Part shown: piece after piece, positions 7,261-64,000 of the stretch
How the letters are laid out: each line of letters opens with the position of its first letter
Numbering within the stretch: position 1 is the first letter of the stretch
From: Bugula neritina
Taxonomy: Eukaryota > Bryozoa > Gymnolaemata > Cheilostomatida > Bugulidae
Reading direction: 5' to 3'
Length of the DNA stretch: 64,000 nucleotides
Assembly: GCA_964035545.1 (NCBI GenBank)
Contig: OZ037769.1
Location: 4,277,929-4,341,928 of the forward strand
Notes under the pieces: generated by a model
Seen by the model: only the letters and a program-made list of their open reading frames with translations
The model's database searches: none
Told to the model about the DNA's origin: nothing
Made by a program: the position numbers and the translations under genes

Positions 7261-7634
7261 GCGAGATTTATGCTAATAATAACATAATACATACATACTG
7301 CTTTTACTCACGTAGCACCAACTCCAAGGTTTAATATAGCTGCAATGCAATGAAATGTTTTATAGGTCTTTAGATTTGGCACACAAGGTGGAGCTTGCCA
7401 TATTATAGTAAGATTTTATAATTACAAAGGTCCAGTAGAGATTTGTGACTTATTTTAACTTGTTTTCTTTTTAATTTATATGCAGCAGTCGTCTATTTCC
7501 AGCATCCTGATGTTTTTTTGTCAGTATTTGAGAAAAATTTTAAAAATAGCTAGCACAAATTTCATCAAATCATTTACCAAAATTCTCAATTTCAGATGTG
7601 CCAGATTTTGCTATCAATTTTTTCTAGAGTCACA

Positions 7635-8480
7635 ATGAAGCCTCCTGTTAGAGCTAATCGGAGCAATAAATTGTTGCATCAAAATGACAAGACAGAAGAA
7701 ACCGAAAAGAAAGCTAAAGCTCCTAAAAAAGCTAAAAAACCTCAACGGCCAAAATCTGATTTTGAAGATGAAAAATGGAAGTTGAAAGAGAAACGTGCAG
7801 TTTTAGAGGCAATGAAAAATATTAAACATTTTGATAAATCACGTGACCTTATTCACATTCAAAAACGAATTCCAAGACGATCTGTCGAAGAAATCAATAA
7901 ATTTTTGTTGGAGTTATCAGCCGAGAAAAACAAGCGATTAGAACGGCAAAAAGAAGAGTTTGACAAAACATATCTCAAGCAGTGGATTACATGCTGTGAT
8001 AGTCAATCTGGCTTAAGCTCCACTTGTTCTGAAGCTGGTGATGGTACAATTGGGAGCCCCCATCCAGCATTAGCATTGTCAGAAGTTATGAACAGGAAAA
8101 ATACTCAAGTGCCACAAGTGATCATCAAACACGACAAACTCACGTGTAATTTAGGCAAAGTCTATGCATTTATAGAATGCTTCCTTGCAGATAGAGACCC
8201 TTTTGATAATTGGTCTAGTGACTCTCAAATGGAATCAGCAGTGCTCATTGAATTAATGAATGACCTGCAGCGAGATGTAAGCAGCTGTTCATTCGACAAA
8301 CAACATGAACACTTTTTCAACAAGTTTCGAGAAACCAAGAAACTGCCAATCTCTGATCACGTTTTTGAAAATCCCTTTCCGAATGATGTTTGTGAATCTA
8401 AATATTTCAATCCTTTAGGCCTTACCAAAGAGTTGCTCCAGTGTGTTGAATACCAACAGGTGCCCAGCAATTCTGACTAA
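7635..8480 (+). CDS. SNAPC2: SNAPC2-like subunit of the snRNA-activating protein complex
   Basis: A single uninterrupted coding exon of 281 residues. SNAPC2 is a subunit of SNAPc, the nuclear complex that binds the proximal element of snRNA promoters for RNA polymerases II and III. Three blocks match vertebrate SNAPC2 in order. The start is MKPPVRANRSNKLL (human starts MKPP with an Arg-rich stretch). A Myb-like segment at residues 42-98 has W48, EKRAV and RRSVEEINKFLLEL. A helical block at 172-212 (GKVYAFIECF, then MESAVLIELM) is followed by NPLGLTKELL near 259-268. Residues 20-40 are very Lys-rich. I chose the ATG at 7635 because MKPP matches the family. An in-frame upstream ATG at 7596 would add 13 residues but directly follows a likely splice acceptor. 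Possible acceptors at 7595 and 7627 suggest a 5' UTR intron. Confidence 0.85.
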   Translation: MKPPVRANRSNKLLHQNDKTEETEKKAKAPKKAKKPQRPKSDFEDEKWKLKEKRAVLEAMKNIKHFDKSRDLIHIQKRIPRRSVEEINKFLLELSAEKNKRLERQKEEFDKTYLKQWITCCDSQSGLSSTCSEAGDGTIGSPHPALALSEVMNRKNTQVPQVIIKHDKLTCNLGKVYAFIECFLADRDPFDNWSSDSQMESAVLIELMNDLQRDVSSCSFDKQHEHFFNKFRETKKLPISDHVFENPFPNDVCESKYFNPLGLTKELLQCVEYQQVPSNSD

Positions 8481-10016: not shown

Positions 10017-13000
10017 TTAGTACGGTCGGCTTCGCCTGTCGCCCCTATCTTGCCATCCGCCACCACCTCTACCACCGCCTCTGCCACCCCCTCGTCCGCC
10101 ACGGAATCCACCACCTGCAAGTAATCATCAGTAAAGAATCAGTCAAGTGCTCTGTCTATTACTATTATACCAATATTACAGGACTATTATAAGGCAGCAG
10201 CAGTGGTCTAGGGGTTAGAGCGTCTGCTTAGTAAACATAAAGTTATTGGTTTGAGCCCAGACAAAGGCCATTGGTGATGTTAGGAAGAGCATCCAGTCAT
10301 AATTGCTCCTGTGTCGCATATGAATAAGTCTTTAGCCCCATTCAACAAAAACCCTTTCCATCAGGACTATTATACTATCATCACACTGCTATTATGCTAT
10401 CTATGAGATCTAGTAAACAGGAAGTAAATAGTAAAATAACTCACCGCCGCCGCCACCACCTCCGCCTCCATCTTTTCTCACAGCTTTACACTTGTTACAG
10501 GAGTCTCTCCATGCAAAGTTTTCATTACCACATTCTCTAAAGAATGAGTTACAAAATACTACATGATGATAACTTCAAATACTGAATCTGATGTCATTTT
10601 ATCCTGAAATTACAATCGAAATAATTACTAGTGCAAAGATTTGTCATGTGGACGATTGATTTCCATCAATAAAAAATTCATGAATTTATTTATTCATAAA
10701 AATATTTATTTATTTATAAAAAAACTCTATACAAAACATATTGAATTTTCATGAAACTCAACAATCCCATGAGCAACAGATTTTAAACAGTTACGAGATT
10801 TCAATTCCTTAAGGCAGAAGTTTTCTGCATGTATGAGTGGGTTCCCTTAATATTCATTAAATTGTACACAAGAAACATTTTGCTGCACTCAAACATAACT
10901 AGTTATTTTTTTTCATTATAAAAACCTCCACTAGCAATTCGAAAAACTGCAAGAGAGCTAGGCTAAAATCAAACATTAGCCTTCTCGTAATATACACATA
11001 TTTACAAAAGTATCAAGACAATGTAACTATACGTACCCACAACTCCAGTCTCCCGGTCTACCACCACCACCACCATCACGGTCACCTCCTCGACCTCGTC
11101 CCCTGCCGCCGCTAAAGCCGCCGCCAAAGCCGCCTCTGTCTCCACCTCGACCTCCTCGGAAACCGCCGCCGCCACCACCACCACGAGCCCCCCTGCCTCT
11201 GCCACCCATGGAGGCCGTTGGGCGCTGAGCCAGCTCTACGTGAATCTGGCAGCCGTTGAAGTCTTTATCTACACAGTAGGCACATTGCCAGAGTAACGTC
11301 ACAGTTCACACAGCAAACAAAGCAGAGCTATTCTACATTCAATTGAATGTCCTCGGGGCAAACCAGCCTCATCTTCACAGGAGATACTGCCACAGCGCCG
11401 TGTACAGATCAAGAGGAGAGGAACAAGTGGTTTACTAGAAGATATATTGGTCTTACACGCCAATGACTCATACACTGACTAGTGATGGAGTACATTTCAC
11501 CTGCACACAGTAGGTTAGTACTGGTACTGTTACTCTGTACTCCTGTATCAGTGGATCTAAGGGGCGTGTGTATTATATAACAGAGCATCATTTTATAAGT
11601 CAAGAGAGAGAAACTTTACATTTGCATGTCGTATAGAGAGCACTGCATACCTATGGCAGCGTAGCATTGAATAAACTCATCTAAATCAAGTTACAGTTGC
11701 GTTACTCGATAAATACATAGCACTATTAGTTTAAAAGATCCGTCTACTCTGTAGCGATCATCACTTATTTCAAAGTAACAAGAGGGACAACTCACTGTTA
11801 AACCACTCGATGGCAGATGTGGCTGTGTATGCGTCGTCATATGTCACAGTAGCTTCACCTTTAGGCATGCCAGTCTGTTTGTTCTTGTATATCCATATCT
11901 TAGGTTGGCCTGTCTTTCGGTCGTTCTACAAACGCATACAGAATTCCATGTTGTATTACGGTACTGGCCTTTATAGATACACCAGACAATATATAGACCG
12001 TAATTGGCAGAATACAAATGCATGGCTAATATTTCAACAGAGGCGAGTAACCTCACCTTAATAATGCCAATTTGCCCAAAGAAAGTAGCCAGGGAACGCT
12101 CATCTATATCGGTGGGGAGGCCTTGTATGAATATCGTGTCTTGTTGGGTGGTCATCTCGGAGTCCCCTCCGCTAAACCCACCACCTCCTCCGCCACCACC
12201 ACTGGAATACCCCCCTCTGCCTCCTCTATCATATCCGCCGCCGCCGCCCCCTCGACCACGATCATATCCACCTCCGCCTACAAACCCAACGGTCATCATC
12301 AAGTGATAGGAAATACGAGTCAATGAGAAATTTCTACCAGTAAAAACTATAGTTCCAATACCAGGAATTCATTTTAAGATATTCGCATTGCCTAGAGACA
12401 AATTGAACTTAGTCAACAGTGATTCGCCTACAATCTTCATGTTATGCACCAACACTGAAGTGTTGATTAAGCTAATGACTTGGATACATATAAAACAAAT
12501 GAGACATGAGTCTAGTGTACAACCTGATAACATGCTACTATGTAGTAGCTTGACACTTAATATAGTAGAACTTAGATACTATAGCAAAATGCAAGTTACA
12601 CAACTTTTTGGATTAGATGAAACCCCCCCCCCCCTCTCACCAGCTATAACAGAGCTGGAACTACTGCTGATGAATTTTTTGGCAGCACATGATGAACCAT
12701 AAATATGTTACATGGACCAAGTTATTTGGATTCAAAATTCTGAAAATTCATCTTTTTCACAGGTTCTTTTCCTGATTAAACAGTTCCTATAAGAAATACT
12801 TATGAACTTGAAATATGCTTAGATATTTCACTTCGTTTCAACTATTGCGCATAGTGCTCGATTATTAAGGAGCTGGCAAGAATCCCTTTTTAAATATCAA
12901 AGGCCTATCCGCAGGCTCTTGGAAGTTTTAAAAAGACTTAATAGTTTGTAATTAAATTAAATCTTGTATTAGTTTTTATTTAATACTCCCCAACTATTAC

Positions 13001-37954: not shown

Positions 37955-40146
37955 TTAGTAATGAGAAGCAGGACAGCTGGATGGTATAACAGTTTTCTTG
38001 TAATCAAAGACTCGGTTATATTTGCAGACTTTAGGAAGAGCTTGGTTGATAAACAGGTCCCTGACCCCGGCAGCATATGTGCATCCTTTTTCAGCTTTCT
38101 TGAAACATTTGTCAGCTGTTTTTTTTCTGTGACTAAAAACAAAATGAGCATAAGCATAATTTAGAAATTTGTAGCAGCTATATCCTAAATTATTAACACC
38201 TATGCCAAAGATATAAATATCATACAGTAATTTGACAAGCAAATTTATGGAAGCAATAGAAACTATTATATTCTACTAAAACATTTTTAAATCAACATAA
38301 TATAGTTTTTACAGTATAGTATACAAGCTTCATGAAACTAAATTTAAGAATCAGCCATGGTCTATAGGAGTTAGAGCGTTTGTCTAGTAAACACAAAGTC
38401 ATGGGTTCGAACCCTGGTAAATGCCATTGGTGATGTTAGGAAGAGCATCCAGTCATAGTTGCTCTTGTGTCACATATGAGTAAGCGCTTAGCTTGCTTTA
38501 AAATATTCTTTCTCATCAGGGGTTTTTGCAGGAGTAGTGAATATAAACTTAAATATCAACTTTTTTAAAAAATACAATGATTGTAAATACGATACGAATT
38601 TGCATAGGACATGCTTGCGTTAATATAGGTGTATATGCTATCTCAATCATCTATAATTTGAACTGCCAACTACAAATATAAAAATGCTTGAACTGCAAAA
38701 TTCATAGAACATATTTTTGTTTGTAAAATGCTAAGATAAGTTCTTTTACTAAAAGTTTCCAAGAATAGAAGTTTTATGGTCATAATGACGAAAAAGTTGT
38801 TTATTGCATAAAAAGATTGTTTCTAATGAATAAAAAAAGGAAGTTATTTGAACGTGTTAAAGTCACTTAGCCCAGTTTGTTAAAATAGTTTTAAAGATGA
38901 CATAAAGCCAACTATAATATTAACTATGTTCTCACCCAAGTGGCATTATTAAGCATTACTTTAAAAAATATGCAAATGACTTACCAAAGGATTCTTTGTC
39001 CACTTGATTCAAACAACTTCTGAAGGCATGTTGGAAGTTGACCACATCCTAAAAAGTGGCAAATAAGATTATAAACTGTGCTTTTATTAACACTTTCCTT
39101 ATATACTCAAGCAATTTATGAATCAGTAGCACAATTTGAATTAAAAATGTATAGCAATTGTTTCTTACCATCTTGTGGAAGCTCAATGTTTGGGCAGTTT
39201 GGAGCAAAGAGTCTTACATAATGAACAGATTGTACCATCCTTTTGACAGGATCTTCCGCAACGCAATCACTGACAGCTTCGTTCAGGACATCTCTGGCTC
39301 TGAATTGAATAAGCATAACATGTAATTGTTATAACTGCAAGTTTTAATGTTTTGCGAAAATTCACTAAAACATAGAATTGCACGAAGGATATGAAATTAT
39401 TAAGCCATTTTACAAAGTAGGACATTTATTATTTTATGATTACTCACTCCAAGCATTTCTTCCGCTCCTTCGTCAAGACTAATTGTTTATACTCACAAAA
39501 TGAGTTGAAAAGTTTGTCTTCACATGCTACAAAATTATATTCAGCTGATTTAAAACATATTAAAGACAATATTAATTTGATTGCATAAAATATATTCTGA
39601 AAGCAGATTTGATGCTATAACAATTACCAACTGTTTAATAGTTGTTACACGTACAAAAAATCATAATAATATTATACGCAGATAAAAGAGAAATAAAATG
39701 TTTATATGATAGATTTTATCTGCTTCATACTTACAAGGCTTATTGTGAGTATTTCCATCGTCAGCTTTAACACTTCCTATATTTGCAAACAATGATACTA
39801 TTTCATTAAAGTTATAAAGCTTCAAATACTTAAATACTTCAATAATTGAAATATTCATACATTAAGCAGTAAAAGTATATTATGTAACGCAACCAGTAAG
39901 TTCAAATATATGTTATATAAAGCAGTTAGCATTTCTACTCACCAATAGCTAAGATAACAGCACATAATGCAATGGTAACTTTCACAGACGCTGCAAATAA
40001 CCGTAACATGTTATTATATATTATAGGAGTTTTCAAGATAATACACTTTGACATACATTGAGTAAACTGTCTTATTTAATTAAACAACACAAAAAAGAAG
40101 GTTAGCATCTAAAAAAATATTTTATCATTAGCATTTACCTACCCAT
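37955..40146 (-). CDS. Secreted cysteine-rich protein, gene A of a three-member family
   Basis: Seven exons: 40143-40146, 39943-39990, 39735-39776, 39448-39526, 39169-39299, 38985-39048 and 37955-38132. Lengths are 4, 48, 42, 79, 131, 64 and 178 nt, giving 181 residues. Exons 1-2 encode a hydrophobic signal peptide (MASVKVTIALCAVILAIG). Exon 3 is a short polar linker. The mature part carries 13 cysteines, with conserved blocks SCEDKLFNSFCEYKQLVLTK, ARDVLNEAVSDCVAEDPVKR, CGQLPTCLQKLF, an adjacent CC pair, and GCTYAAGVRDLFINQALPKVC. I do not recognise a known family. The helix-like spacing suggests a disulfide-rich alpha-helical secreted protein. Its head-to-head neighbour is gene B. A SINE sits in the sixth intron. 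Confidence 0.87.
38354..38555 (+). mobile_element. tRNA-Thr-derived SINE, copy 4
   Basis: The clearest tRNA-like head. The anticodon arm TGTCTAGTAAACA reads anticodon AGT (Thr), and the B box is GGGTTCGAACCC. The body and tail match the other copies. It lies in intron 6 of gene A, antisense to the gene. Confidence 0.88.
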
Positions 40147-42062: not shown

Positions 42063-44245
<2,183 letters not shown>

Positions 44246-46000: not shown

Positions 46001-48276
46001 ATGAGTAAGTACTTATCATTTTTTCTTTCTAAATAAAGATATTTTAAACAAGCAAAGCGGGATGCTGTAACAGCAGCAATAATAGCATATATCACTATAC
46101 TATATATTATATTTATTTTCAGTGTCTGTGAAAGAGATCGTAGCATTTTGCGCTGTTGCCTTTTTTATTGGTAAGTTATATCGCTATGTGTTTTATATAT
46201 TTATAATATTTTTAAAAATACTAGATGCAGTGAATATAATATTAAACAATGCATCATGAAGTGTATTATATTAAAACATTTTCAGTGTTGATAAAATGAT
46301 AATATTGTTTGCTCATATATTATAGGGACAGTTGAAGCTGCAGGGGGAAATAGCACAACAGATGTCAGTAAGTATACATACAGTTGTGAAAACTTATCAC
46401 GATAATATTTTAGTTCTATTTATTTCCTCATAACATTATAACTATATGTGCATAATAACTATAAAAATTTTGACAAATATGATTGTATTAAATCAAAATG
46501 TACATATAATATTATAGCGCTTGAAAAATAATTTTCGGACAAAAAATATTTTTAATAACTTTAATGTATTTGTTGCAGGTTGTGAAGATAAACTTTTTGA
46601 CTCATTTTGCAAGTACAAACAACTAGTCTTGACACAGGAGAGGGAAAAATGCTTAGAGTGAGTATATAAAGCATAAGATAATAATGTCCCACTTTGTAAA
46701 ATAGCTTAATAATTTCATATCCTTCAATTCTATGTTTGAGTAAATTTTCGCAAAGCACTAAAACAGTTATAGCAATTACATGTTATGCTTATTCAATTCA
46801 GAGCCAGAGATGTCCTGAACGAAGCTGTCAGTAATTGTGTTGCGGAAGATCCTGTCAAAAGAATGGTACAATCTGTTCATTATGTAAGACTCTTTGCTCC
46901 AAATTGCCCAAACATTGAGCTTCCACAAGATGGTGAGAAACAATTGCTACATCTTTAATTCACATTGTGCTGCTGATTCATAAATTGCTTGAGTATATAA
47001 AGAAAGTGTTAATAAAAGAACAATATGTGATCTTATTTGCCACTTTTTAGGATGTGGTCAGCTTCCAACATGCCTTCAGAAGTTGTTTAACAGATCTGGA
47101 CAGAGAATCCTTTGGTAAGTCATTTGCTTATTTTTAACCTAATGCTAAATAATGCCACTTGATTGAGAATATAATTAATATTATAGTTGGATTTATACCA
47201 TCTTTGAAAAATATTTTAACAAATTGGACTAAGTAATTCTAACACATTCAAAAACTTATTTTCCTTATTGTAACACCAAACAGTAGTTTTGAAGCAGCTA
47301 TGAAATAACAAATTCTAAGCGCTATAACAGCAATACTTGTACTCTAGATTTTTAGTTAAAGATGTTATTGCAAAGTTATTTTTAGAGATATTTTTGATAA
47401 ATTCTACAGGCTTTTTCAAAAGTTTGTGGTTGACAGCCTGAATCGGTAGATTTTCCAGATGTAACATATATGTGTATATCTGTCATCTGATATATGCATG
47501 TCCCTCAAATCTTTATTGCATTTACAATAAAGATATTAAGTTCTCCACTAACAAAAAACTTTGATACGACGTTTTTTAAACATTGGAAATAAAATTTATT
47601 AAGTGTTTAAATGTGGACACCTCTTTGAACTCATACAACGTTTAGGAAAAGTTTATTTCCCAAAATATTTCACCAACGTTTCATAAACAAATTATAAGAA
47701 TTTTTTTTCCAACGTTCATAAAATGTCATATCAAAGATTTTTGTTAGTGGAGAACTTAATATATCTATATTGTAAATGCAATAATGATTTGAGTGAAATG
47801 CATATATCAGATGACAGATATAGATATATGCTATACATCTAGAATATATACAGATTTTGACTGTCAACCACAAATTATGTTTAGGCATTTTATTTATAAA
47901 CTTAGATTGTATATTATATTGAAAAAAAACTATATAATCAATTTAGTATATAATAAATGTTCAGGAAAACAAAGTTCAACAGAGTAAAATCTTTGGCCGT
48001 CCAAAACTTTTTTTCAAACCTATAACATAACATTCATCTGCAGTGGGTATGTATTATTATTGCTAAATTTAATTTATATTTATTTATTTTATATTTAGCT
48101 GCAATAAACAAGCAGCTGACAGATGTTTCGCCAGAGCTGAGAATGGATGTACATATGCTGCCGGGGTCAGGGACCTGTTTATCAACCAAGCTCTTCCTAC
48201 AATCTGCAACCGTAATCAATACTATAATTATAGGGAAACTGTTATACCATCCAGCTGTCCTGCTTCTCAATACTAA
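46001..48276 (+). CDS. Secreted cysteine-rich protein, gene C
   Basis: Seven exons: 46001-46004, 46123-46170, 46326-46367, 46579-46657, 46802-46932, 47051-47114 and 48099-48276. Lengths are 4, 48, 42, 79, 131, 64 and 178 nt, giving 181 residues. The signal peptide is MMSVKEIVAFCAVAFFIG. The mature part has 13 cysteines and is closest to gene A (VHYVRLFAPNCPNIELPQDG is identical in both). Intron 4 is also similar between A and C, so these copies are recent or homogenised. Intron 6 holds a long inverted repeat. All splice sites and frames are intact. No known domain is recognised. Confidence 0.87.
47423..47876. repeat. Long imperfect inverted repeat in intron 6 of gene C
   Basis: The left arm (about 47423-47610) and right arm (about 47683-47876) are reverse complements with scattered mismatches. 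Matching words include TTAAGTTCTCCACTAACAAA with its complement near 47740-47760, and TTGTGGTTGACAG with CTGTCAACCACAA at the outer ends. It could be a fold-back element or a local inverted duplication. Confidence 0.8.
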
Positions 48277-50010: not shown

Positions 50011-50790
50011 TTTAGTTTATATAAGATATATAAGTTTTCAATTTAATAGTATCTTATTTTACATAGTATATTATGGCATCACCTATAGAAAAAAAAAGCA
50101 ATTATGAAATACTTTAGCTCATGAAACTTGAACAAATAAAAGCCAAAGAATGAAAGTGCAGCTTTGAGAAGGCACATGGCATAATAGTCAGCCAAGTTGG
50201 AACAGTGAATTTTATACTAGCTGCCAACTAGATACACTAACTTAGATATATACTAGCTTAGATATACTAGCTTAGATATACTCTCTTAGATATACTATAT
50301 AGCTAGTATACTAGCTTATACTAGAAGCCTAAATGTACTAAAATTTTGTTAAATTAATATCTTAATGCACAAACTGTGGGAAACACTTTTCATCTACAAA
50401 TTGTAGAAAAATACTTCAGAAATGTTATGATTAAAGCCGTATAGGCAATATATGTAGTTTCATTTTGTGAATTCAAAACAACCAAACACAACTATAAACT
50501 TTTACTTCCTATAGGGTTCTTGGTAAGAGACTCAACACTAAAAAATGTTTTTACCGATGGCCTCTTTGGCCCAGGCTTCACAGGGCTAATCTAATTATCA
50601 AAAATGCCTTTTTGTGATGCTTTTCAAATTGATTATTCCAAAAGACTAAACTATTACTTTTCTGTAGAGCATAGCCATCAAAAGGTTTAGTGCACAGCGC
50701 ATTAAATTATTCACGTTTGATGTGAGTAAATATATTTAAAACTGCAGACATATCAATCTACATTTCAGGACATTGACCGTGATTAGTGTC

Positions 50791-51282: not shown

Positions 51283-52640
51283 AAGTGACTCCCGAAGCTG
51301 AAAATCTTCACAAAGGTGATTGCTTTCATAAAAGTAATTACCTGGTGCTCCCATACAGCTATTTTTATAGGTCAAGACAACAGATTCGCATCATAAGTAT
51401 TCAACAAGTTAAGGGCTAAATATTGTAAATTGAGCAAATGCATAAATTTGAATGAGTAGCTGCAACGAAGATTGATTTCTTGCTACAGCTTCATGAGAGA
51501 ACTGCTGAATGTTCTTGTTGGACGGAAACATTACTTGCTTATTCATTTTGATTGCTAGCTCTGAAAATTAATATTTGAAACTATAAGGTTGGAAAATTGT
51601 TATTATTGTTCATCATTTTCATCATTGCTATCTTCGTTGGTTTTAATTTACAACTATAATGCAATAGTTTTTGTTTGTAATTATTATTTTTAGTTAATAA
51701 TTATTGATGTTTTTCCTATCATCATTTATTTGTTTATTTGTTGCCTATACTAGTAGAGAAGTAAAGTGTATAACCAGTCTCATTCTTTTACCAGTTTGTG
51801 GAGCTAAATTGTGTTTAATATAGAATATACTGCTATATGTAACTATTTCGTAGTGTTACATACATAATACTAATACAGCTATTCAAACCAAAGCATCTCT
51901 ATAGCCTTGTGTAATCAACAAGCCAATAGTTTTGATGCAAAGAAGTTCAGTTTTAATTGTTTCAAACACAAAAATGTCAAAAGAGTTGTTTTAAAAATGT
52001 AATAAGCATTGCTTTGTGCGAGAATCAAAAATTTAAATTGTTTCAATATGTTAAGATTTACCGGGTCAGTCTGAATAAATGTAGCCTAAAACATAAAACC
52101 GAAAGTTGTGAACTATTTTTTCTTTTTGTTTTGTCAAACAAAATCTGGAAGCATCTTGAGAGTTTATCACGTCCTACAAATAATAAACAAATATCAGTGT
52201 CCCAATCTAAGTTAATGTTCTATGTATAAAATAGTTTCAAACTTGCAAGGTAACAGCTTACAGCTCAAGTATATACGTGTTTTAATATTTTGGTGAAACT
52301 CAATGCTTTTGCAGTTTGAAAAATAACTCATCTATACTGAATTTGTTGGGGCACCCTTTTAACAAAATTTTTATTAGCAAAATGACCACTGATGAGTGAT
52401 AGCTACCTGCAAAATTTTTGGGCTCTAAATAAAATAAACTAAGACACACCTTGTAAAGATGATTAGCTATATAAATTATTGCATTTGGAGAAAAAAGTGC
52501 AGGTACTAGTGGCAAAAATGAGTTTTACAAAGTGCATGGTGAAATATTATATTGACACAGGAAAAAGCAGTATTATCATAATAATGAATGTGTATAATTA
52601 AAAAAATGATAAGGTTTTTGTATGAATGTGTTTACAAACC
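51283..52640. other. Intergenic sequence left of gene D
   Basis: AT-rich and without recognisable genes or repeats. The left side of gene D's 3' UTR falls here. The 48.3-50.8 kb stretch contains flank duplicated from the gene B 3' side (48277-49090) and the SINE at 49838. Confidence 0.4.
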
Positions 52641-55600
52641 TTAGATATCACGAAGTTTTCCTCTCAAAATCATTTGAAATAATTTCATCAAAATAGATTC
52701 AGAATCTGTAAAAAAAACAAGAAATTATGTTAACAAAATTTTGAAAGGTTTCTAAATATGTTAATAGTTATATATTGCATGCATTTGAACATTATAGTTA
52801 TACTTTTTGCATACGTGTTTTCCAATTATTTGAATGTAATAACATTAGATAAAAATTAGCAAAAGTTTTTTTATTATATGTAATATTTCAGATTGATAGC
52901 AAGTAGCAAATATGCATGATAAAATTTGTCAGTAACCGCACACAAAAAATGTTTTGACTAAACATCAAAAATGGCTGCATGTAAATTCAATACCAAAAAC
53001 AAATGTACATATTGATATGTGAGTAGAATATATTTACCTTGTATTCCACGGTCATATTCTTCTTCAGATTCTTCAGATTCTTCACCTCTTCCTGTATTGA
53101 AATAATTAAATTATTAAAGGTAAAACTTACAAATTAAGTACTCAGTGTACATGCAATAATAGTTATATTTTTATGTTTTTGATTCAGTGACTTTTAAAAA
53201 AAATTTTGTATTCCATCTCAACTTTATATGATGATTTTGTTTAAAAACTTTTTTTGAAGCCACAATTAGAGTAAAAAACTTATGTTACCTTAAAAAAATC
53301 TCTGCACTGTGTAAATATACAATTTTGAGAAACTAGCTATTGATATGTAATTTCAATGTAACTACTATATGTATTACGTATAGCAACAATTTCTTTCAGG
53401 ACCTATATATACCTCTTCCTGCATTCAAACAAAAATAATCTTTTATCAGAAACTACAGAGGAGCTATTCAAATAATTCATACATTTTATTACTTTCAATA
53501 AACCTTTTGTTTTAACAAACCTATGAATATGATGTATAGGCTGTAAGCTAATTTCAGCAATATATACATAATATAATAATATAACATATTTACCAGGATA
53601 TCTACGCCTATTTCTTCTAGGTCCTTCGCCTCGTCCTACATTAACAAACAATAATAATAAACTACCAAAGTCTGGCAAATATTAGGTACCCAAATGTTTA
53701 ATTCATAAATATAATATATTTTGAAAATATAATATAATATATATAAATATAATAATTATAGCTATATGTATTATTGTACATAAATTAACAATTATTTAAC
53801 AAATATACCTAAATGATTTTTCAACAAGCAAAAGCATTATAGAGATTTTGAGAATGACAAATTTATGTATAGTATAGAACCGTATTTAAATATCTTTGTA
53901 AATAAAAAATTCAATAAAATCCCACATTGAAATGTATAAAGTATACCGCATATATACTTACCATGCATTCTGCGGTCAAAATATCCCTCATTTTCTTCAC
54001 TTCTTCCTACATTTAGTCAGAAATAATATATTAGGCTTTCAAAATAGATAATATTATAGATAATTAACTAATTTACATGGTAATAAATTTGCTATTGTAT
54101 ATTATTAATTCAATAAATATTTAAGGAAAAACCTAAATTTATATTAAATATATTGATTTCTGCCATGTAAATATTAATGTTTTTGTGCATAATATCCATC
54201 AAGATGTTAGTGTTTATTTTTTATAAATACCTCTTAATTTTGGTTTTCAACAGCAATTAAATTTTACCAATTTACAAACTTACGAATTATTTTATAAAGC
54301 AGTTTATACAACTGCATATAACTATATTACATTGTAATATTATTAGGATCAATTATGTAAAAAATTTTCAAAATATTATCATTATGTAACAAATTACACT
54401 GCTTTCTGTATAAACAATGAACAAGAAATTTTAGGTCAACATTTTTTTCTTGTCACTTTTAGGTACTAAAGGTAAAAGTATATATACTCAGTGTAAATAT
54501 TGATAATTAGGTAAACACATATAAATTACCTAATAGTATTTGACGAATACTTGTTGCTGGGCTTTCATCTCTCTCTGCAATAATAAACAATAATATAGTT
54601 ACCATAAATGTTTAGTTAAGTGCTGACAAAATTTGCACATAGATGATGTAAAAACAGATCAGTATGTTTTCAATTTTATGTTAATTTGAATTAAATTCTG
54701 CCTTACTCACGCAAGAAATTAAGGCTTCTATATTAGTAATGAATTTATACTCAATTAATAAAATCTGTGTAAATATGTAAGTATAGAAAGGCTAACACAC
54801 ATTGAAATATAAATATACAATATCCTTATCTTGCATTCGGTGGCCTTCATTTTCATCACTTCTTTCACCTCTTCCTACATTTTAGCAATAAGAATATTAT
54901 ACGAAAAACAAAAACATAATTACTCAAGAATCCGTGAATACTGCTGATTGTTTAAGAGTTTTATTTTAAAAAACTTGAAATAAATAAAAGCTAATTCCAC
55001 CTCAAAATTAAATTTATTAACTCTAGCAACAATTTACTATATAGTTAGTATTTCTGTACAGCGTACTTACCAGAATATCTGCGTCTATTGCCTCTATGCT
55101 CTTCACCTCTACCTATATAATACATGTTTTAAAATTTCGGAATGAAAAACTACCAAATCAAGAAAAAATATATAAAATATATAAGCAGATCTCAAAATAA
55201 TGTGTAAATATAAAATACCAAGAAATGAATTTATTGAAATGTAGTTATTATATAATACTCACCTCGCATTTCACGGTCATATTCTTCTTCAGATTCTTCT
55301 CTTCTTCCTACATTTGAACAACAATGATAATTATCCAAATTTGATAATTCAAGTTATCAAATAATTTATATGTTAATAAATATGCTACTGTATATTAACA
55401 ATTTGATAAAATATGTAATACATCATAGAGTGTTTCTATTTCATATAACTGAATATATTTGATTGAGCATTGAAAAAAGTACATATTATTTGCTGTTTCT
55501 ATACAACATATGCCTACCAAAATACGGGAGTCTATCTTCTCCAGACTCTTCCCCTCTTCCTGTGTTTCAACAGCAAGCAGGTTTTACCAGTACTTACAAA

Positions 55601-58600
55601 TTAGGTATAAAATGTTTCACTCATTTAAATTTTTATGATAGTATAACATGGACTCAGAATAAAAATCAGTTACCCAAGTAATTTATACATCTTATTACTT
55701 CAATAGAAATTTTATTTTAGCATAGAACTATTATGGATATATATTATGAGCTAATTTCAACAATATTTATAATATAATAATATAACATATTTACCAGGAT
55801 ATCTATGTCTAGTTTCTCTAAGGCCTTCACCTCTTCCTGTAACATTCAAGCAATAATCATACATTGCAAAATTTGGCAAATTATGTACCCAAATACTTAG
55901 TTAATAAAATAATATATATAACATAGCTATGTATTATTGTACATAATTATATTAACAATTATTTAATGAATATAACTAAATAATTTTTCAACAAACAAAA
56001 AGCATTAAAGAGATTTTGAGAATGATAAATTTATATATAGTATATAGAACCGTATTTAAATATTTGTGTAAATATATAGCTGTTGTATTGTATGTTGACT
56101 GTTATTTTATAATTGAAATAATTAAATTATTTTGTAACAAACATAACATATTATAGATGCTTTAAGATAATATTATCATTTTGATATTATATAATACTGT
56201 TTGCTATTTATAGTAATAGATTTTTCTTGTATACTAGTAAATCTCAACACTTGGTGCAAGTACATGATTCTAACAAATGCACACATTAATACATCAACAA
56301 ATACATAATTACCAATAATTATTCGGTGAATATTCCTCTCAGGTTCACCTTCATCTTCTCTTCCTGCATTCAAACAATATGTTTTTTACAACCAAATCCA
56401 AGCTCTGCTCTTATAAAATAATTATTTCGAGAAATTTACATATTGAAATGTACATATACAATATATACCTACATTTGTTGATATATTATAAGTACAATTC
56501 ACTTACCTCGCATGCGGCGGTCAACAATTTCTTCACTCTCTTCACCTCTTCCTAAATTTAAACAATATTAATATCATTTTCAACAAAATCGACAAACTAT
56601 GTATTCAAATAGTGCTTACATTAAAAATTGAAAAATTTTATTTCATCAACTCAATAGTTCTTGCAAAAACTTAAGATTTTGGAATGAGAAACTACCAAAT
56701 CAAAAAAATATATATAAAATATATCATCAGATCTCAAAATGGTGTGTAACTATAAAATACTAAGAAATGTATCTATTGAAATATAGTTATTATATAATAC
56801 TTACCTTGCATTTCATGGTCATATTCTTTCTCAGATTCTTCTCTTCTTCCTATATTTGAACAACAATGATAATTATCCAAATTTGATAATTCAAGTAATC
56901 AAATAATTTGTATATATTATGTTAATAAATACGCTACTGTATATTATCAATTCAATAAAATATTTAATACATTATAGAATGTTTCTATTTCATATAATTA
57001 AATATATTTGATTGAGCATTGAAAAAAGGACATATTACTGCTGTTTCTATACAACATAGTTACGGGGATAAGGGCGTCTATCTTCTTTAGATTCTTTCCC
57101 TCTTCCTGGGTTTCAACAGCAAGCAAATTTTATCAGTACTTACAACTTAAGGTATAAAATATTTTACACATTTATAGTTTCATGGTAGTATAATATTAAT
57201 TTAAAATAAAAAAATAGTTACCCAAGTAATTTTTACATCTTATTACTTCAAAAACAATTTCATTTTACTTAAACTATTATGGGTATATATTATGAGCTAA
57301 TTTCAACAATATTTATAATATAATAATATAGCATATTTACCAGGATATCTATGTCTAGTTTCTCTAAGGCCTTCACCTCTTCCTGTAACATTCAAGCAAT
57401 AATAATAAATCACAAAAGCTGGCAATTTATGTACCTAAATATTTATTTCATAAATATGCGGTTGTAACATTGTGTAGCATAATTTAACAATTTTTTTATT
57501 GATATGACTAAATGCTTTTGTAATAAACATAACATATTATAAATACTTTAAGATAATATTATCATTTTGATATTATATAACACTGCTTGTTATTTATAGT
57601 AATACATTTTTCTTGTATATTATTAAATCTCAACACTTGGTGCAAGTACATGATTCTAACAAATGCAACCATTAATACGTCAACAAATACATAATTACCA
57701 ATAATAATTCGGTGAATATTCCTCTCAGGTTCACCTTCATCTTCTCTTTCTGCATTCAAACAATATTTAAATGTTTAAAAAAATAACACATTGATTGCTC
57801 ACACACTCAATTCGTTAATAACTGCATTGTTTTATTTCAACAATTCATCAGCTTTTCAAAACACTTATATCTTGTCTACACTACTGAGCAAATGAATAAT
57901 TCACAATTCAAGACCATTTTTAACAATAAGTCAAGACGTTTAGAGTGGCAAATTGCTCTTGTGTATAGGCAAGTCTCTACACTCTGTGTAAATATATGAA
58001 TCTGAGAAATGCTGATATTATTATGCATGTAAGTATTTTAGTATATGATATTTACCTCGCATTATGGGCTCATTATTTGCTTCAGAGTCGTCACCTCTTT
58101 CTACATTTAAACAAAAGCAACGTCTTATCAAAATTGACAAGGTAGTCAACCAAATATTTATACAATAATGAATACATAGTACTGAATACTACAAAAAAAA
58201 TGAAGTAAAGTGTTATATATAGTGTGCTTTTTAAATAATGTCATAATAAGTTTATATCAAAAATCTTTGTTGCCATGCTTTAAAAAACACAATAAACTAA
58301 AGCTTGTATATTAAAAGATGCATAATATGTTGTATAGAGCTTAGCCTAAATACTGTTTATGTATAAACAGTCTAGTGACTGCTTATAAGTGATGATGGGT
58401 AGCCAATATAAATGATACAACCTGTCAGTGACTACATATACCAACAGATTATGAACTGAATACCAAAACTATCTGTGAATTTAATACCACAAAACAAACT
58501 CACACACCAATATGTAAGTGGAAAATACTTACCTCTCATGCGGCGGCCATAATTTTCTTCATTTCTTTCACCTCTTCCTAAATTTGACCAAAAATATCAA

Positions 58601-60058
58601 AACTTGCAAAACTTAACTTTGAGAATTTCACAATTGATTTTCAAAAACCTCATGCATTGATGATTTTATTATTCTATTTCATTGATTTAATAACAATTTT
58701 AACTTCACAAACCTGTACTGAACATAAGCTAATGCAGGTAAATTATTGATTTAAAAAATTGTAGATTTTGGTGTTTCTATTTAACACACTTACCAGGATA
58801 AGGGTATCCATTTTCTCCAGATGCTTCACCAGTTTCTGTAAAATGAATTTACCAGAATTTACAAATCAGGTCATGAAATAGCTGATACATTTTGAGTTAT
58901 GTAATGGTATTTTTTCAATGTACTACAATATATTTTTAGCTATTATATGAATTATATAGCTAGAGCTGCTATTGTTATAATCTGAAAATTAAATAATGGA
59001 ATATTTAACAAATTTAAGCGTTTTCAATTCAAGAGTTGCCACAGAATTGTTTAGTATTATATGCATGATCATCTATATAATAAATATTATCATAATTATT
59101 AAAAAAAATTCCTATTAAAAATTTCATCCAAAATTTAAGCAAATCCCAACACTCTGTGTAAATTATATATAATTTTGACAGAAGCACATATTCAAAGGTA
59201 AGTACCATGTATTATTTACATGTAAGTACAACTTACCTCGCATTCTGCCGTAAACACCTCTTTCTTCTGCTTCACCACTTCCTATATTTAAAAGATACTC
59301 AAGAATTATCACAACTTTAAAACAGTTCATACATGTAAAAATTCTTTACTCTACATTGAGAGATAGGTAAAGTAGTGAAGAAATTAAGAAAAGCCTGTGT
59401 TGTTGATAAAAAATTTAGCAAAAGAAATTATATTCTTGCAAATATTTTAACCAACGCCCCAAAGCAAAATTTCATAAAATAATTAAATAACTTAGGCTAT
59501 GTAAATTTCTTTTCTACTGCTCTTTAATGCATTTTAATAGTATTTTTGACATACTATTGCCATATTTATTTTTTGTAGTTGGCAATAAGTAATACTGCAT
59601 CACATTTAAAGAAATATCATTCATATGTACTTTTGTATAACAAAATATAATAACAAAAAAATATATAACAAAATATAATTTTATAATGCATTTCTAATTA
59701 CAATATATATTAATAACAAATACCAAATTATTAAAACTTACCGGCAAACAAGGCAACTGCACATAATGCTATGATCAGTCTTACAGACACTGAAAATAGA
59801 TATCACAGTTATTAAAATTTATTGCGTATGCTGAGGAAACCAAATAAGAAGCGTTTTAACTTATAGCTTGTTATCTAATTGTTGAAAACAAAATGCTTTC
59901 TTTCTGATGAAGCCCATGCAAAATAGTTTTTTCAAAAGTTTCAAGTGTGAAGATATTAAAGGAAATTCTAGATAGATCAACAATAATTTTGAACTAAATA
60001 TATTTACTCCAGTTAAACAGCAAGATATATATATAGTGAAGAATATATACTTACACAT
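52641..60058 (-). CDS. Secreted micro-exon gene (gene D) with ~20 symmetrical cassette exons
   Basis: Exons 5' to 3': 60055-60058, 59742-59789 (signal peptide MLSVRLIIALCAVALFAG), 59237-59281, 58794-58835, 58533-58577, 58056-58100, 57699-57749, 57341-57382, 57064-57105, 56805-56849, 56507-56551, 56313-56363, 55795-55836, 55518-55559, 55263-55307, 55071-55112, [54830-54874, donor AT], 54530-54574, 53962-54006, 53594-53635, 53413-53418 (6 nt), 53038-53091, 52705-52641. Every internal exon starts and ends in phase 1 and is a multiple of three. Skipping any of them therefore keeps the frame. Without the AT-donor exon the total is 933 nt, 310 residues. Four cassette types recur: RGEESEEIVDRRMRG-like, RGEGLRETRHRYPG-like, REDEGEPERNIHRIIIG-like and RGEESGEDRLPYFG-like. 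The terminal exon encodes a hydrophobic/basic tail (SILMKLFQMILRGKLRDI). There is no cysteine outside the signal. Known schistosome micro-exon genes share this design. Function unknown. Confidence 0.85.
59363..59523. mobile_element. ~160-bp palindromic MITE, copy d (degraded)
   Basis: TAGGTAAAGTAGTGAAGAAA at the left and AAATTTCTTTTCTACTGC at the right are diverged inverted repeats. The interior matches copy a (GCAAAAGAAATTAT). It lies in intron 2 of gene D. Confidence 0.6.
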
Positions 60059-60141: not shown

Positions 60142-60152
60142 CACTTATATAC
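60142..60152 (-). promoter_or_regulatory. TATA box of gene D
   Basis: On the minus strand TTTTTGTATATAAGTGA, about 90 bp before the ATG. It is the same motif and spacing as in gene A, and the same GTATATAAGTG as gene B. Confidence 0.7.
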
Positions 60153-63510: not shown

Positions 63511-64000
63511 GATATTACCAGAAAGCAACAGTTTGCATTACTTATGTGTTATACATTGCTTTTGCATTTTGCTAAAATATACTGTTAGGTAGTTGTTTGG
63601 TATATAGTGCTACATGTATACAATACTGATCAAACTATTTAAACCAATGCAGTTTCATATAACCTACGTGATCAACAAGTCAACAGTGTTAATGCAATGA
63701 AATTTATTTGAAATAAGTTCAAATTAGTAACATGACAAAAATTTTAATAAAAGAGTTGTTTTAAATATGTAATTGATATTTTCAAGTCTATTAGATTTAA
63801 GTTAAAATAAGAGAGTTTAATCTCAACTATTTTGTTTGCAATTAAAAATATGGTTTTGAAGGGGGTTTGGGGTGATTTAATAACAATATTTTAGTCAAGC
63901 TGCCACAATTAGCCTACAGGTATATTAATAAGAATTATTATTTTTTGTAAATGGAGCAGTGGGAAGGTAAAACAAGTTTCTCATTGACATAATACTGATT

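What the first reader, a model, noticed from the sequence alone, without database searches (positions are those of the whole stretch)
52641..60058. A micro-exon gene: about 20 symmetrical phase-1 cassette exons of 6-54 nt encode a modular secreted protein
After a signal-peptide exon, every internal exon (45, 42, 45, 45, 51, 42, 42, 45, 45, 51, 42, 42, 45, 42, 45, 45, 45, 42, 6, 54 nt) begins and ends in phase 1. Any subset can be spliced together without frameshift, so the gene could yield very many protein variants. The cassettes are acidic/arginine-rich and fall into four recurring types. This is the architecture of schistosome micro-exon genes, but the sequences do not recall those proteins and the setting (next to cysteine-rich paralogs) looks new.
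Basis: partly seen in the sequence, partly recalled or inferred. Interest (0 to 1): 0.92.

Follow-up and report, generated by a model that had tools for sequence, protein, structure and literature searches.

The report
Bryozoan gene built from micro-exon cassettes
A sea-mat animal carries two neighbouring genes for secreted proteins in which one tiny exon of about 14 amino acids has been copied about 20 and 35 times, and related genes next to them still carry a single copy, so the steps by which such micro-exon genes arise can be read from the genome.

Summary
The window is chromosome 5 of the bryozoan Bugula neritina. The gene (G1) has a signal-peptide exon and 18 intact class 1-1 cassettes of 42-54 nt; any subset stays in frame. 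The last exon is the worn first exon of a cysteine-rich domain whose other exons lie downstream as relics.
G1 is one of a pair. The next gene upstream, mostly outside the window (G2), has 35 class 1-1 cassettes followed by an intact 12-cysteine domain. Both belong to a chromosome 5 family; 12 of 17 short members examined show one candidate 1-1 micro-exon of 27-63 nt upstream of the same domain exon. Five of eight GenBank family proteins carry that segment.
Best reading: amplification of one symmetric micro-exon in a phase-1 intron gave secreted proteins with long, charged, probably disordered modular tails. It works like schistosome MEGs and aphid bicycle genes but is of separate origin. Combinatorial splicing is allowed, not shown.

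The parts
60144..60151 (-). TATA box (TATATAAG) of G1
   Evidence: the two alignment blocks holding TATA box and leader (win about 60153-60043) are 98 of 110 identical to G2, against 174 of 363 in seven neighbouring non-coding blocks (blocks chosen after seeing the alignment); a TATATAAGTG lies upstream of 2 of the 7 nearest short paralogs
60055..60058 (-). coding part of first exon, ATGT, then gtaagt donor
   Evidence: same ATGT|gtaagt in G2
59742..59789 (-). signal-peptide exon, 48 nt
   Evidence: MLSVRLIIALCAVALFAG with the ATGT; homologous 48-nt exon in G2 and in 7 of 7 nearest short paralogs; signal peptide by inspection, no predictor run
59237..59281 (-). cassette 1 (GSGEAEERGVYGRMR)
58794..58835 (-). 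cassette 2 (ETGEASGENGYPYP)
58533..58577 (-). cassette 3 (GRGERNEENYGRRMR)
58056..58100 (-). cassette 4 (ERGDDSEANNEPIMR)
57699..57749 (-). cassette 5 (EREDEGEPERNIHRIII); first of duplicated block 5-8
57341..57382 (-). cassette 6 (GRGEGLRETRHRYP)
57064..57105 (-). cassette 7 (GRGKESKEDRRPYP)
56805..56849 (-). cassette 8 (GRREESEKEYDHEMQ)
56507..56551 (-). cassette 9 (GRGEESEEIVDRRMR)
56313..56363 (-). cassette 10 (copy of 5)
55795..55836 (-). cassette 11 (copy of 6, identical)
55518..55559 (-). cassette 12 (copy of 7, 10 of 42 nt different)
55263..55307 (-). cassette 13 (copy of 8)
55071..55112 (-). cassette 14 (GRGEEHRGNRRRYS)
54830..54874 (-). cassette 15, donor lost (ATAAGG in place of GT....); probably skipped
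54530..54574 (-). cassette 16 (ERDESPATSIRQILL)
53962..54006 (-). cassette 17 (GRSEENEGYFDRRMH)
53594..53635 (-). cassette 18 (GRGEGPRRNRRRYP)
   Evidence: by eye: cassette-like text with an in-frame TGA continues past it
53038..53091 (-). last intact cassette (GRGEESEESEEEYDRGIQ)
52640..52705 (-). terminal exon with stop 52643-52641; degenerate homologue of the first cysteine-domain exon (e1)
   Evidence: 66 nt against 79 nt, all three e1 cysteines of the paralogs missing, same AG|GTTTGT donor sequence; homology judged by place, donor and alignment by eye (a protein search with it hit only itself clearly)
52282..52386 (-). relic of cysteine-domain exon e2
   Evidence: 66% nt identity to G2 e2, with gaps, stop and lost donor
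52129..52179 (-). relic of exon e3
   Evidence: 84% nt identity to G2 e3 over 51 nt; donor lost
50336..50389 (-). possible relic of exon e4 (weak)
   Evidence: KVFPTVC match, E 0.35, stop in frame
63938..64000 (-). 3' end of G2 (last exon, to its stop); the rest lies at chr5:4341929-4355662
   Evidence: the model was cut 4 codons short of the stop
37960..39988 (-). short paralog M_4317 with one 1-1 micro-exon at 39776-39735 (GSVKADDGNTHNKP); 3' end approximate
42226..44242 (+). short paralog M_4320 with one 1-1 micro-exon at 42578-42619 (GTVKATDGGTLNKP)
46122..48273 (+). short paralog M_4324 with one 1-1 micro-exon at 46326-46367 (GTVEAAGGNSTTDV)

Best explanation
G1 is a micro-exon gene that arose inside a tandem family of secreted 12-cysteine proteins on Bugula neritina chromosome 5. 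The family's basic gene is a short first exon, a signal-peptide exon, one symmetric 1-1 micro-exon, domain exons of 79, about 131 and 64 nt, and a last exon. In the ancestor of G1 and G2 the micro-exon, with its flanking intron, was duplicated repeatedly inside the phase-1 intron (inferred from homology of the units and their number). Because every unit is class 1-1, copies can be gained, lost or skipped with no frame cost. G2 keeps the cysteine domain behind a 35-cassette tail; G1 has lost the domain and now encodes a 308-aa secreted protein that is nearly all tail (shown at sequence level). The tails are highly charged and probably disordered, so the genes most likely make extracellular matrix, mucus or surface secretions whose length and charge pattern are set by which cassettes are present (inferred). 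In G2 a furin-like RKRR site lies just before the last cassette, which could release the tail from the domain (inferred). Combinatorial splicing is possible but undemonstrated.
For: Species: nine chromosome lengths agree with the published table. Cassette array far above background. G2: 35 of 35 modelled cassettes 1-1 and a multiple of 3, then an intact cysteine domain (17 of the 35 also came from the blind scanner, the rest were picked by eye by the same rules). Across 54 cassettes of both genes (G1 19 including the broken one, G2 35; the 6-nt exon left out), acceptor AG in 54, donor GT in 53. Seven nearest short paralogs and G2 share exon lengths 48, 79 and 64; e2 is 131 in 5 of the 8 and 126, 134, 137 in the others. 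One 1-1 micro-exon in the same intron in 7 of 7 nearest short paralogs and a candidate upstream of e1 in 5 of 10 further ones. Five of 8 GenBank/JGI family proteins (EB796_006143, 006145, 006147, 006155, 006156) carry the matching segment; the other three lack their N-terminal part. G1 and G2 cassettes interleave on a tree. TATA and leader 98 of 110 identical between G1 and G2 against 174 of 363 in neighbouring blocks. Constraint in duplicated blocks: exon differences 16/180 against 118/886 intron in G1 (p 0.11), 36/159 against 287/808 in G2 (p 0.0017), pooled p 0.0005.
Against: No RNA or protein evidence for G1 or G2 was available, and G1 has no match in the protein search (G2's tail was not searched). 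Within G1 alone, constraint is not significant, and one of its four duplicated cassettes (7 against 12) differs more than the introns do (10/42). In G2 the duplicated exons hold 2 gap events. G1 has lost its cysteine domain, one cassette donor and probably another cassette, so it could be dying. No single micro-exon was found in 5 of 17 short members, and the filters differed between calls; several candidates passed and I chose by resemblance. In three of the further members (L067-L069) the signal exon was not located. The tail's function is inferred from composition only.
Confidence: 0.72

Rival explanations
1. Fixed splicing (a rival to the combinatorial reading, not to the origin): all intact cassettes are always included. 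Symmetric phase is just what exon duplication in a phase-1 intron leaves, and the gene makes one long repeat protein, not a repertoire.
For: The units are homologous with their introns, so equal phase needs no selection; splice sites are mostly good (donor GT 53 of 54, acceptor AG 54 of 54).
Against: Donor strength varies (GTAAGT to GTTGGT, GTATAA), some introns are only 126-150 nt, and a cassette with a lost donor has been tolerated; none of this shows skipping.
Confidence: 0.5
2. G1 is a pseudogene in decay: cysteine domain gone, cassettes going.
For: e2-e4 relics with stops and lost donors; cassette 15 donor lost; decayed cassette at 53418; G1 exon-intron contrast alone p 0.11.
Against: 18 of 20 cassettes intact with no stop in 927 nt of CDS, 0 gap events in the exons of the duplicated block against 9 in its introns, promoter and leader 89% identical to G2.
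Confidence: 0.2
3. Prohormone: each cassette encodes a small amidated peptide (for example ...LPYF-GRR, ...HRYP-GR) cut out at basic sites.
For: G[KR] occurs 15 times in 255 residues of the G1 tail and 46 in the G2 tail, with 12 and 28 dibasic pairs; 13 of 18 intact G1 cassettes begin GR.
Against: Residues before G-R differ between cassettes; 19 of 35 G2 cassettes do not begin with G[KR] (counted); G2 ends in a folded cysteine domain; the main text of a B. neritina neuropeptide paper holds no LPYF or GRGE string (PMC4990251, passages; its figures with the sequences are not held).
Confidence: 0.06
4. True relatives of schistosome MEGs by descent or transfer.
For: Architecture only.
Against: No protein match; local origin from the cysteine family; no W for the MEG post-signal motif.
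Confidence: 0.02

Closest known systems
Schistosoma micro-exon genes (MEGs)
   Same: signal peptide, many short exons of 6-81 nt mostly multiples of three, linked with alternative splicing (PMC10526429, passages read)
   Different: no sequence similarity found; MEG post-signal motif with W absent; here exons are 42-54 nt duplicates of one another and single-exon relatives sit next door
Aphid bicycle and megacycle genes
   Same: secreted, many micro-exons, internal exons starting at codon position 2 (= intron phase 1), up to over 100 microexons (PMC9168663, passages read)
   Different: cassettes carry no cysteine, so no CYC motif in the tail; different phylum
Group III phospholipase A2 (weak resemblance of the cysteine domain)
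   Same: 3 of 4 single-sequence searches hit bee venom PLA2, E 0.0007-0.0015, over 46-63 residues; profile E 0.01
   Different: no catalytic CCxxHDxC; no Pfam PLA2 match; B. neritina has group III PLA2 genes with that motif elsewhere
Vertebrate elastin and SCPP genes (recalled, not tested)
   Same: secreted, many small symmetric cassette exons
   Different: sequence, phase (SCPP phase 0, recalled) and origin

Membership tests
Schistosome MEG | most internal exons 6-81 nt and multiples of three | tested here: met
   18 of 18 intact G1 cassettes; G2 34 of 35 in that range, one of 207 nt; feature
Schistosome MEG | N-terminal signal peptide | tested here: inconclusive
   MLSVRLIIALCAVALFAG looks like one and is conserved in paralogs; no predictor available
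Schistosome MEG | hydrophobic/aromatic motif after the signal ending W-polar-(K/H/R) | tested here: not met
   no W anywhere in the 308-aa G1 product; motif
Schistosome MEG | sequence relationship to MEG proteins | tested here: inconclusive
   no protein at E <= 0.001, but the search needs shared 5-residue words and MEGs were not compared directly
Schistosome MEG | alternative exon use in transcripts | not testable with these tools
   no RNA held
Aphid bicycle genes | many micro-exons starting at codon position 2 | tested here: met
   feature
Aphid bicycle genes | CYC motif(s) in the mature protein | tested here: not met
   no Cys in the G1 or G2 tails; the G2 domain was not tested against the CYC motif
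Group III phospholipase A2 | catalytic CCxxHDxC | tested here: not met
   absent from all 10 aligned family sequences
Group III phospholipase A2 | Pfam PF05826 match | tested here: not met
   0 of 10 family members at E <= 10; none of the 11 genome matches lies at this locus
Group III phospholipase A2 | shared fold | tested here: inconclusive
Amidated-peptide precursor | conserved peptide followed by G and basic cleavage site in every repeat | tested here: not met
   cassette ends differ and 19 of 35 G2 and 5 of 18 G1 cassettes do not begin G[KR]

The most novel reading that the evidence does not exclude
An independently evolved, still growing micro-exon system in a colonial animal: G1 and G2 splice their 18 and 35 cassettes combinatorially, so one colony or its larvae secrete a large, changing repertoire of charged tails, some tethered to a cysteine domain and some (G1) domain-free. 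The single-cassette paralogs would be the preserved starting state, making this a micro-exon gene family whose origin can be read step by step.
Probability: 0.3. Interest if true: 0.88.

Novelty: new variant of a known kind. Interest (0 to 1): 0.73.

Why it matters
Micro-exon genes are best known from parasites and gall-formers, where they look like host-manipulation tools and (as far as I recall) have no visible ancestor. Here the same architecture appears in a free-living filter feeder, in a second gene beside it, and next to relatives with one cassette. That suggests a general route (one 1-1 exon after a signal peptide, amplified within its phase-1 intron) and lets it be tested with ordinary RNA and sister-species genomes. 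It also shows how easily such genes are missed: no predicted protein for G1 was found.

Tried and rejected
Pattern YAGGAAGAGGTGAA over the genome: 11 matches, 6 in G1; at the other 5 loci the exon scanner found nothing, and the two I read at the motif (L004, L005) are not cassette-like. G1 as a DNA query first returned mostly a dispersed intron repeat; without it 4 matches, itself, G2 cassette 4 and two places elsewhere that match one non-cassette stretch, so DNA search is weak for such arrays and further arrays are not excluded. Neuropeptide reading weighed and rejected. PLA2 membership not supported. Comparison with B. neritina's own PLA2 loci gave no useful match. Structural alignment gave only middling helical matches, none read as kinship. 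Intron motif like TTTACACAGAGTG after cassettes: an allied form in 23 of 54 units, taken as shared ancestry, not shown functional. Paper searches in the PMC library: among the rows listed (20 of 50; 20 of 159; 12 of 661; 12 of 102) none is about micro-exon genes in bryozoans; on elastin gave nothing useful.

Full report
WHERE IT IS. The window is C5:4277929-4341928 of a 215,847,546-base assembly. Its nine large contigs (35.64, 33.58, 32.42, 24.80, 17.72, 16.05, 15.81, 13.35, 10.88 Mb) match the chromosome table of the Bugula neritina assembly tzBugNeri2.1 (PMC11480708, passages), and the mitochondrial COX1 reads sensibly with AGR as Ser (my judgement of conserved sites). So this is a bryozoan, not a flatworm or an aphid.

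THE OBSERVATION. On the minus strand, a TATA box and leader lead to ATGT|gtaagt, a 48-nt signal-peptide exon, and a run of 42-54 nt exons that begin and end in phase 1. Eighteen are sound. The spliced CDS has 927 nt including the stop, giving 308 residues, and 10000 of 10000 random cassette subsets stay in frame. With one set of filters, 16 such exons lie on this strand in 7.5 kb, none on the other, and 8 in 140.1 kb of other sequence from the same chromosome (at least one of the 8, GTVEVESKSSKN in L059, is itself a family micro-exon). The filter does not prove the phase, since many cassettes are open in phase 0 as well; the start and signal exons set it.

WHAT THE LAST EXON IS. The cysteine-rich exons near 44 and 48 kb belong to a family with 21 e2-like exons at E <= 0.1, all on chromosome 5, 20 of them between 4.097 and 4.343 Mb; G1 and a further divergent copy come on top. 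The seven nearest short members and G2 share the exon plan: signal peptide 48, e1 79, e2 131 in 5 of 8, e3 64 nt, e4 (one of them, M_4267, is frameshifted in my model). G1's terminal exon sits where e1 should be, keeps the e1-type donor, and has lost 13 nt and all three cysteines. Downstream relics of e2 (66% identity to G2, gaps), e3 (84% over 51 nt) and, weakly, e4 follow. I conclude that G1 is a family member that lost its domain.

THE SECOND GENE. Scanning the flanks showed a dense second array. G2 starts at about chr5:4355662 and ends in the window's last bases. It has the same promoter and leader, MLSVRVTIALCAFALFAG, 35 cassettes (34 of 33-57 nt, one of 207 nt), every one 1-1 and a multiple of three, then e1-e4 intact. 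Seventeen of the 35 came from the scanner, the rest by eye. Its tail has blocks: tyrosine/arginine-rich, acidic, and lysine/histidine/glycine-rich. Of 54 cassettes in both genes, 54 have AG and 53 have GT.

THE ANCESTRAL STATE. In the same signal-to-e1 intron, each of the seven nearest short paralogs has one 1-1 micro-exon of 27-42 nt (five, two with relaxed filters; where several candidates passed I took the one that resembles the others). Of ten more distant members whose upstream region I could read, five gave a candidate of 36-63 nt (4226865, 4097152 with a weak donor, 4166004, 4160751, 4171912) and five gave none; in the last three of those with a candidate the signal exon was not located. 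Arrays were found in 2 of 19 members examined, G1 and G2; at least 4 members were not examined. Five of the eight family proteins found in the database (EB796_006143, 006145, 006147, 006155, 006156; seven of the eight are B. neritina, one is a metagenome protein) carry a 9-14 residue segment at that place. These models come from another B. neritina assembly (recalled for the EB796 tag; contig of 99,602 bases); whether RNA supported them I did not check.

HOW IT GREW. Units duplicated with their introns. In G1 cassettes 5-8 and 10-13 are copies (introns 13% different), in G2 8-11 and 20-23 (36%). On a tree of 53 G1 and G2 units (G1 19, G2 34, the 207-nt one left out) and 7 short-paralog units, G1 and G2 units of the RMR-ending type interleave, so the array probably began before the genes split, while the lysine-rich units are G2's own. 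The tree is midpoint-rooted and I read no support values.

IS IT ALIVE. Between G1 and G2 the TATA-to-donor stretch is 98 of 110 identical, seven neighbouring non-coding blocks 174 of 363. Exon copies differ less than intron copies: G1 16/180 against 118/886 (p 0.11), G2 36/159 against 287/808 (p 0.0017), pooled p 0.0005. Against this, one G1 pair differs by 10 of 42 nt and the G2 exons hold 2 gap events (17 in introns; in G1 0 and 9). NG86 dN/dS is about 0.5 in G1 (0.073/0.148) and 0.42 for two of the four G2 pairs, those of equal length. G1 alone is not proven functional.

FUNCTION. The tails are 49% (G1, 255 of 270 residues counted) and 40% (G2) charged, near neutral overall, without cysteine. 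In G2 two RKRR sites stand in the tail, one just before the last cassette. The cysteine domain, modelled from database relatives, is six helices (pTM 0.71); the signal and most of the micro-exon part have pLDDT below 50, consistent with disorder there. No clear structural relative. A weak sequence hit to group III PLA2 recurs in 3 of 4 single queries, but the catalytic motif and the Pfam match are absent. I commit to a secreted matrix, mucus or surface protein with a modular polyampholyte tail, at about 40% for that function.

RELATION TO THE KNOWN. It works like MEGs and bicycle genes; membership of either fails on a tested feature. Origin by amplification of a local exon is the new element.

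Noticed in passing
window 59359-59539: A dispersed repeat of about 170 bp lies in the second intron of G1; 39 other matches at 78-82% on C1-C9 among the 40 scored of 930 candidates.
   Followed up: partly
window 11346-11570, minus: Rfam SNORA53-like H/ACA snoRNA above the gathering score (43.1 bits), in a region that by eye holds a FUS/TAF15-like glycine-rich RNA-binding protein gene.
   Followed up: no
window 7596-8480, plus: A 294-aa ORF, lysine-rich N-terminus; identity not tested.
   Followed up: no
L049 (G2), cassette junctions 30-31 and 34-35: Two RKRR-S furin-like sites created across exon junctions in the G2 tail.
   Followed up: partly
chr5:4268278 (M_4267, L053): Short paralog M_4267 has a 126-nt e2 against 131 and a shifted frame in my model, so it may be a pseudogene or mis-modelled.
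   Followed up: no
G000 C147 (L012), C196, C17: Likely non-bryozoan contigs: C147 begins with CCCCAA telomere-like repeats as in ciliates (recalled), C196 carries a second, different COX1 and C17 a bacterial-type oxidase (my judgement).
   Followed up: no
G000 C6:11174072-11175412: A near full-length nuclear or misassembled copy of the mitochondrial COX1 (433 bits against 435 for C295).
   Followed up: no
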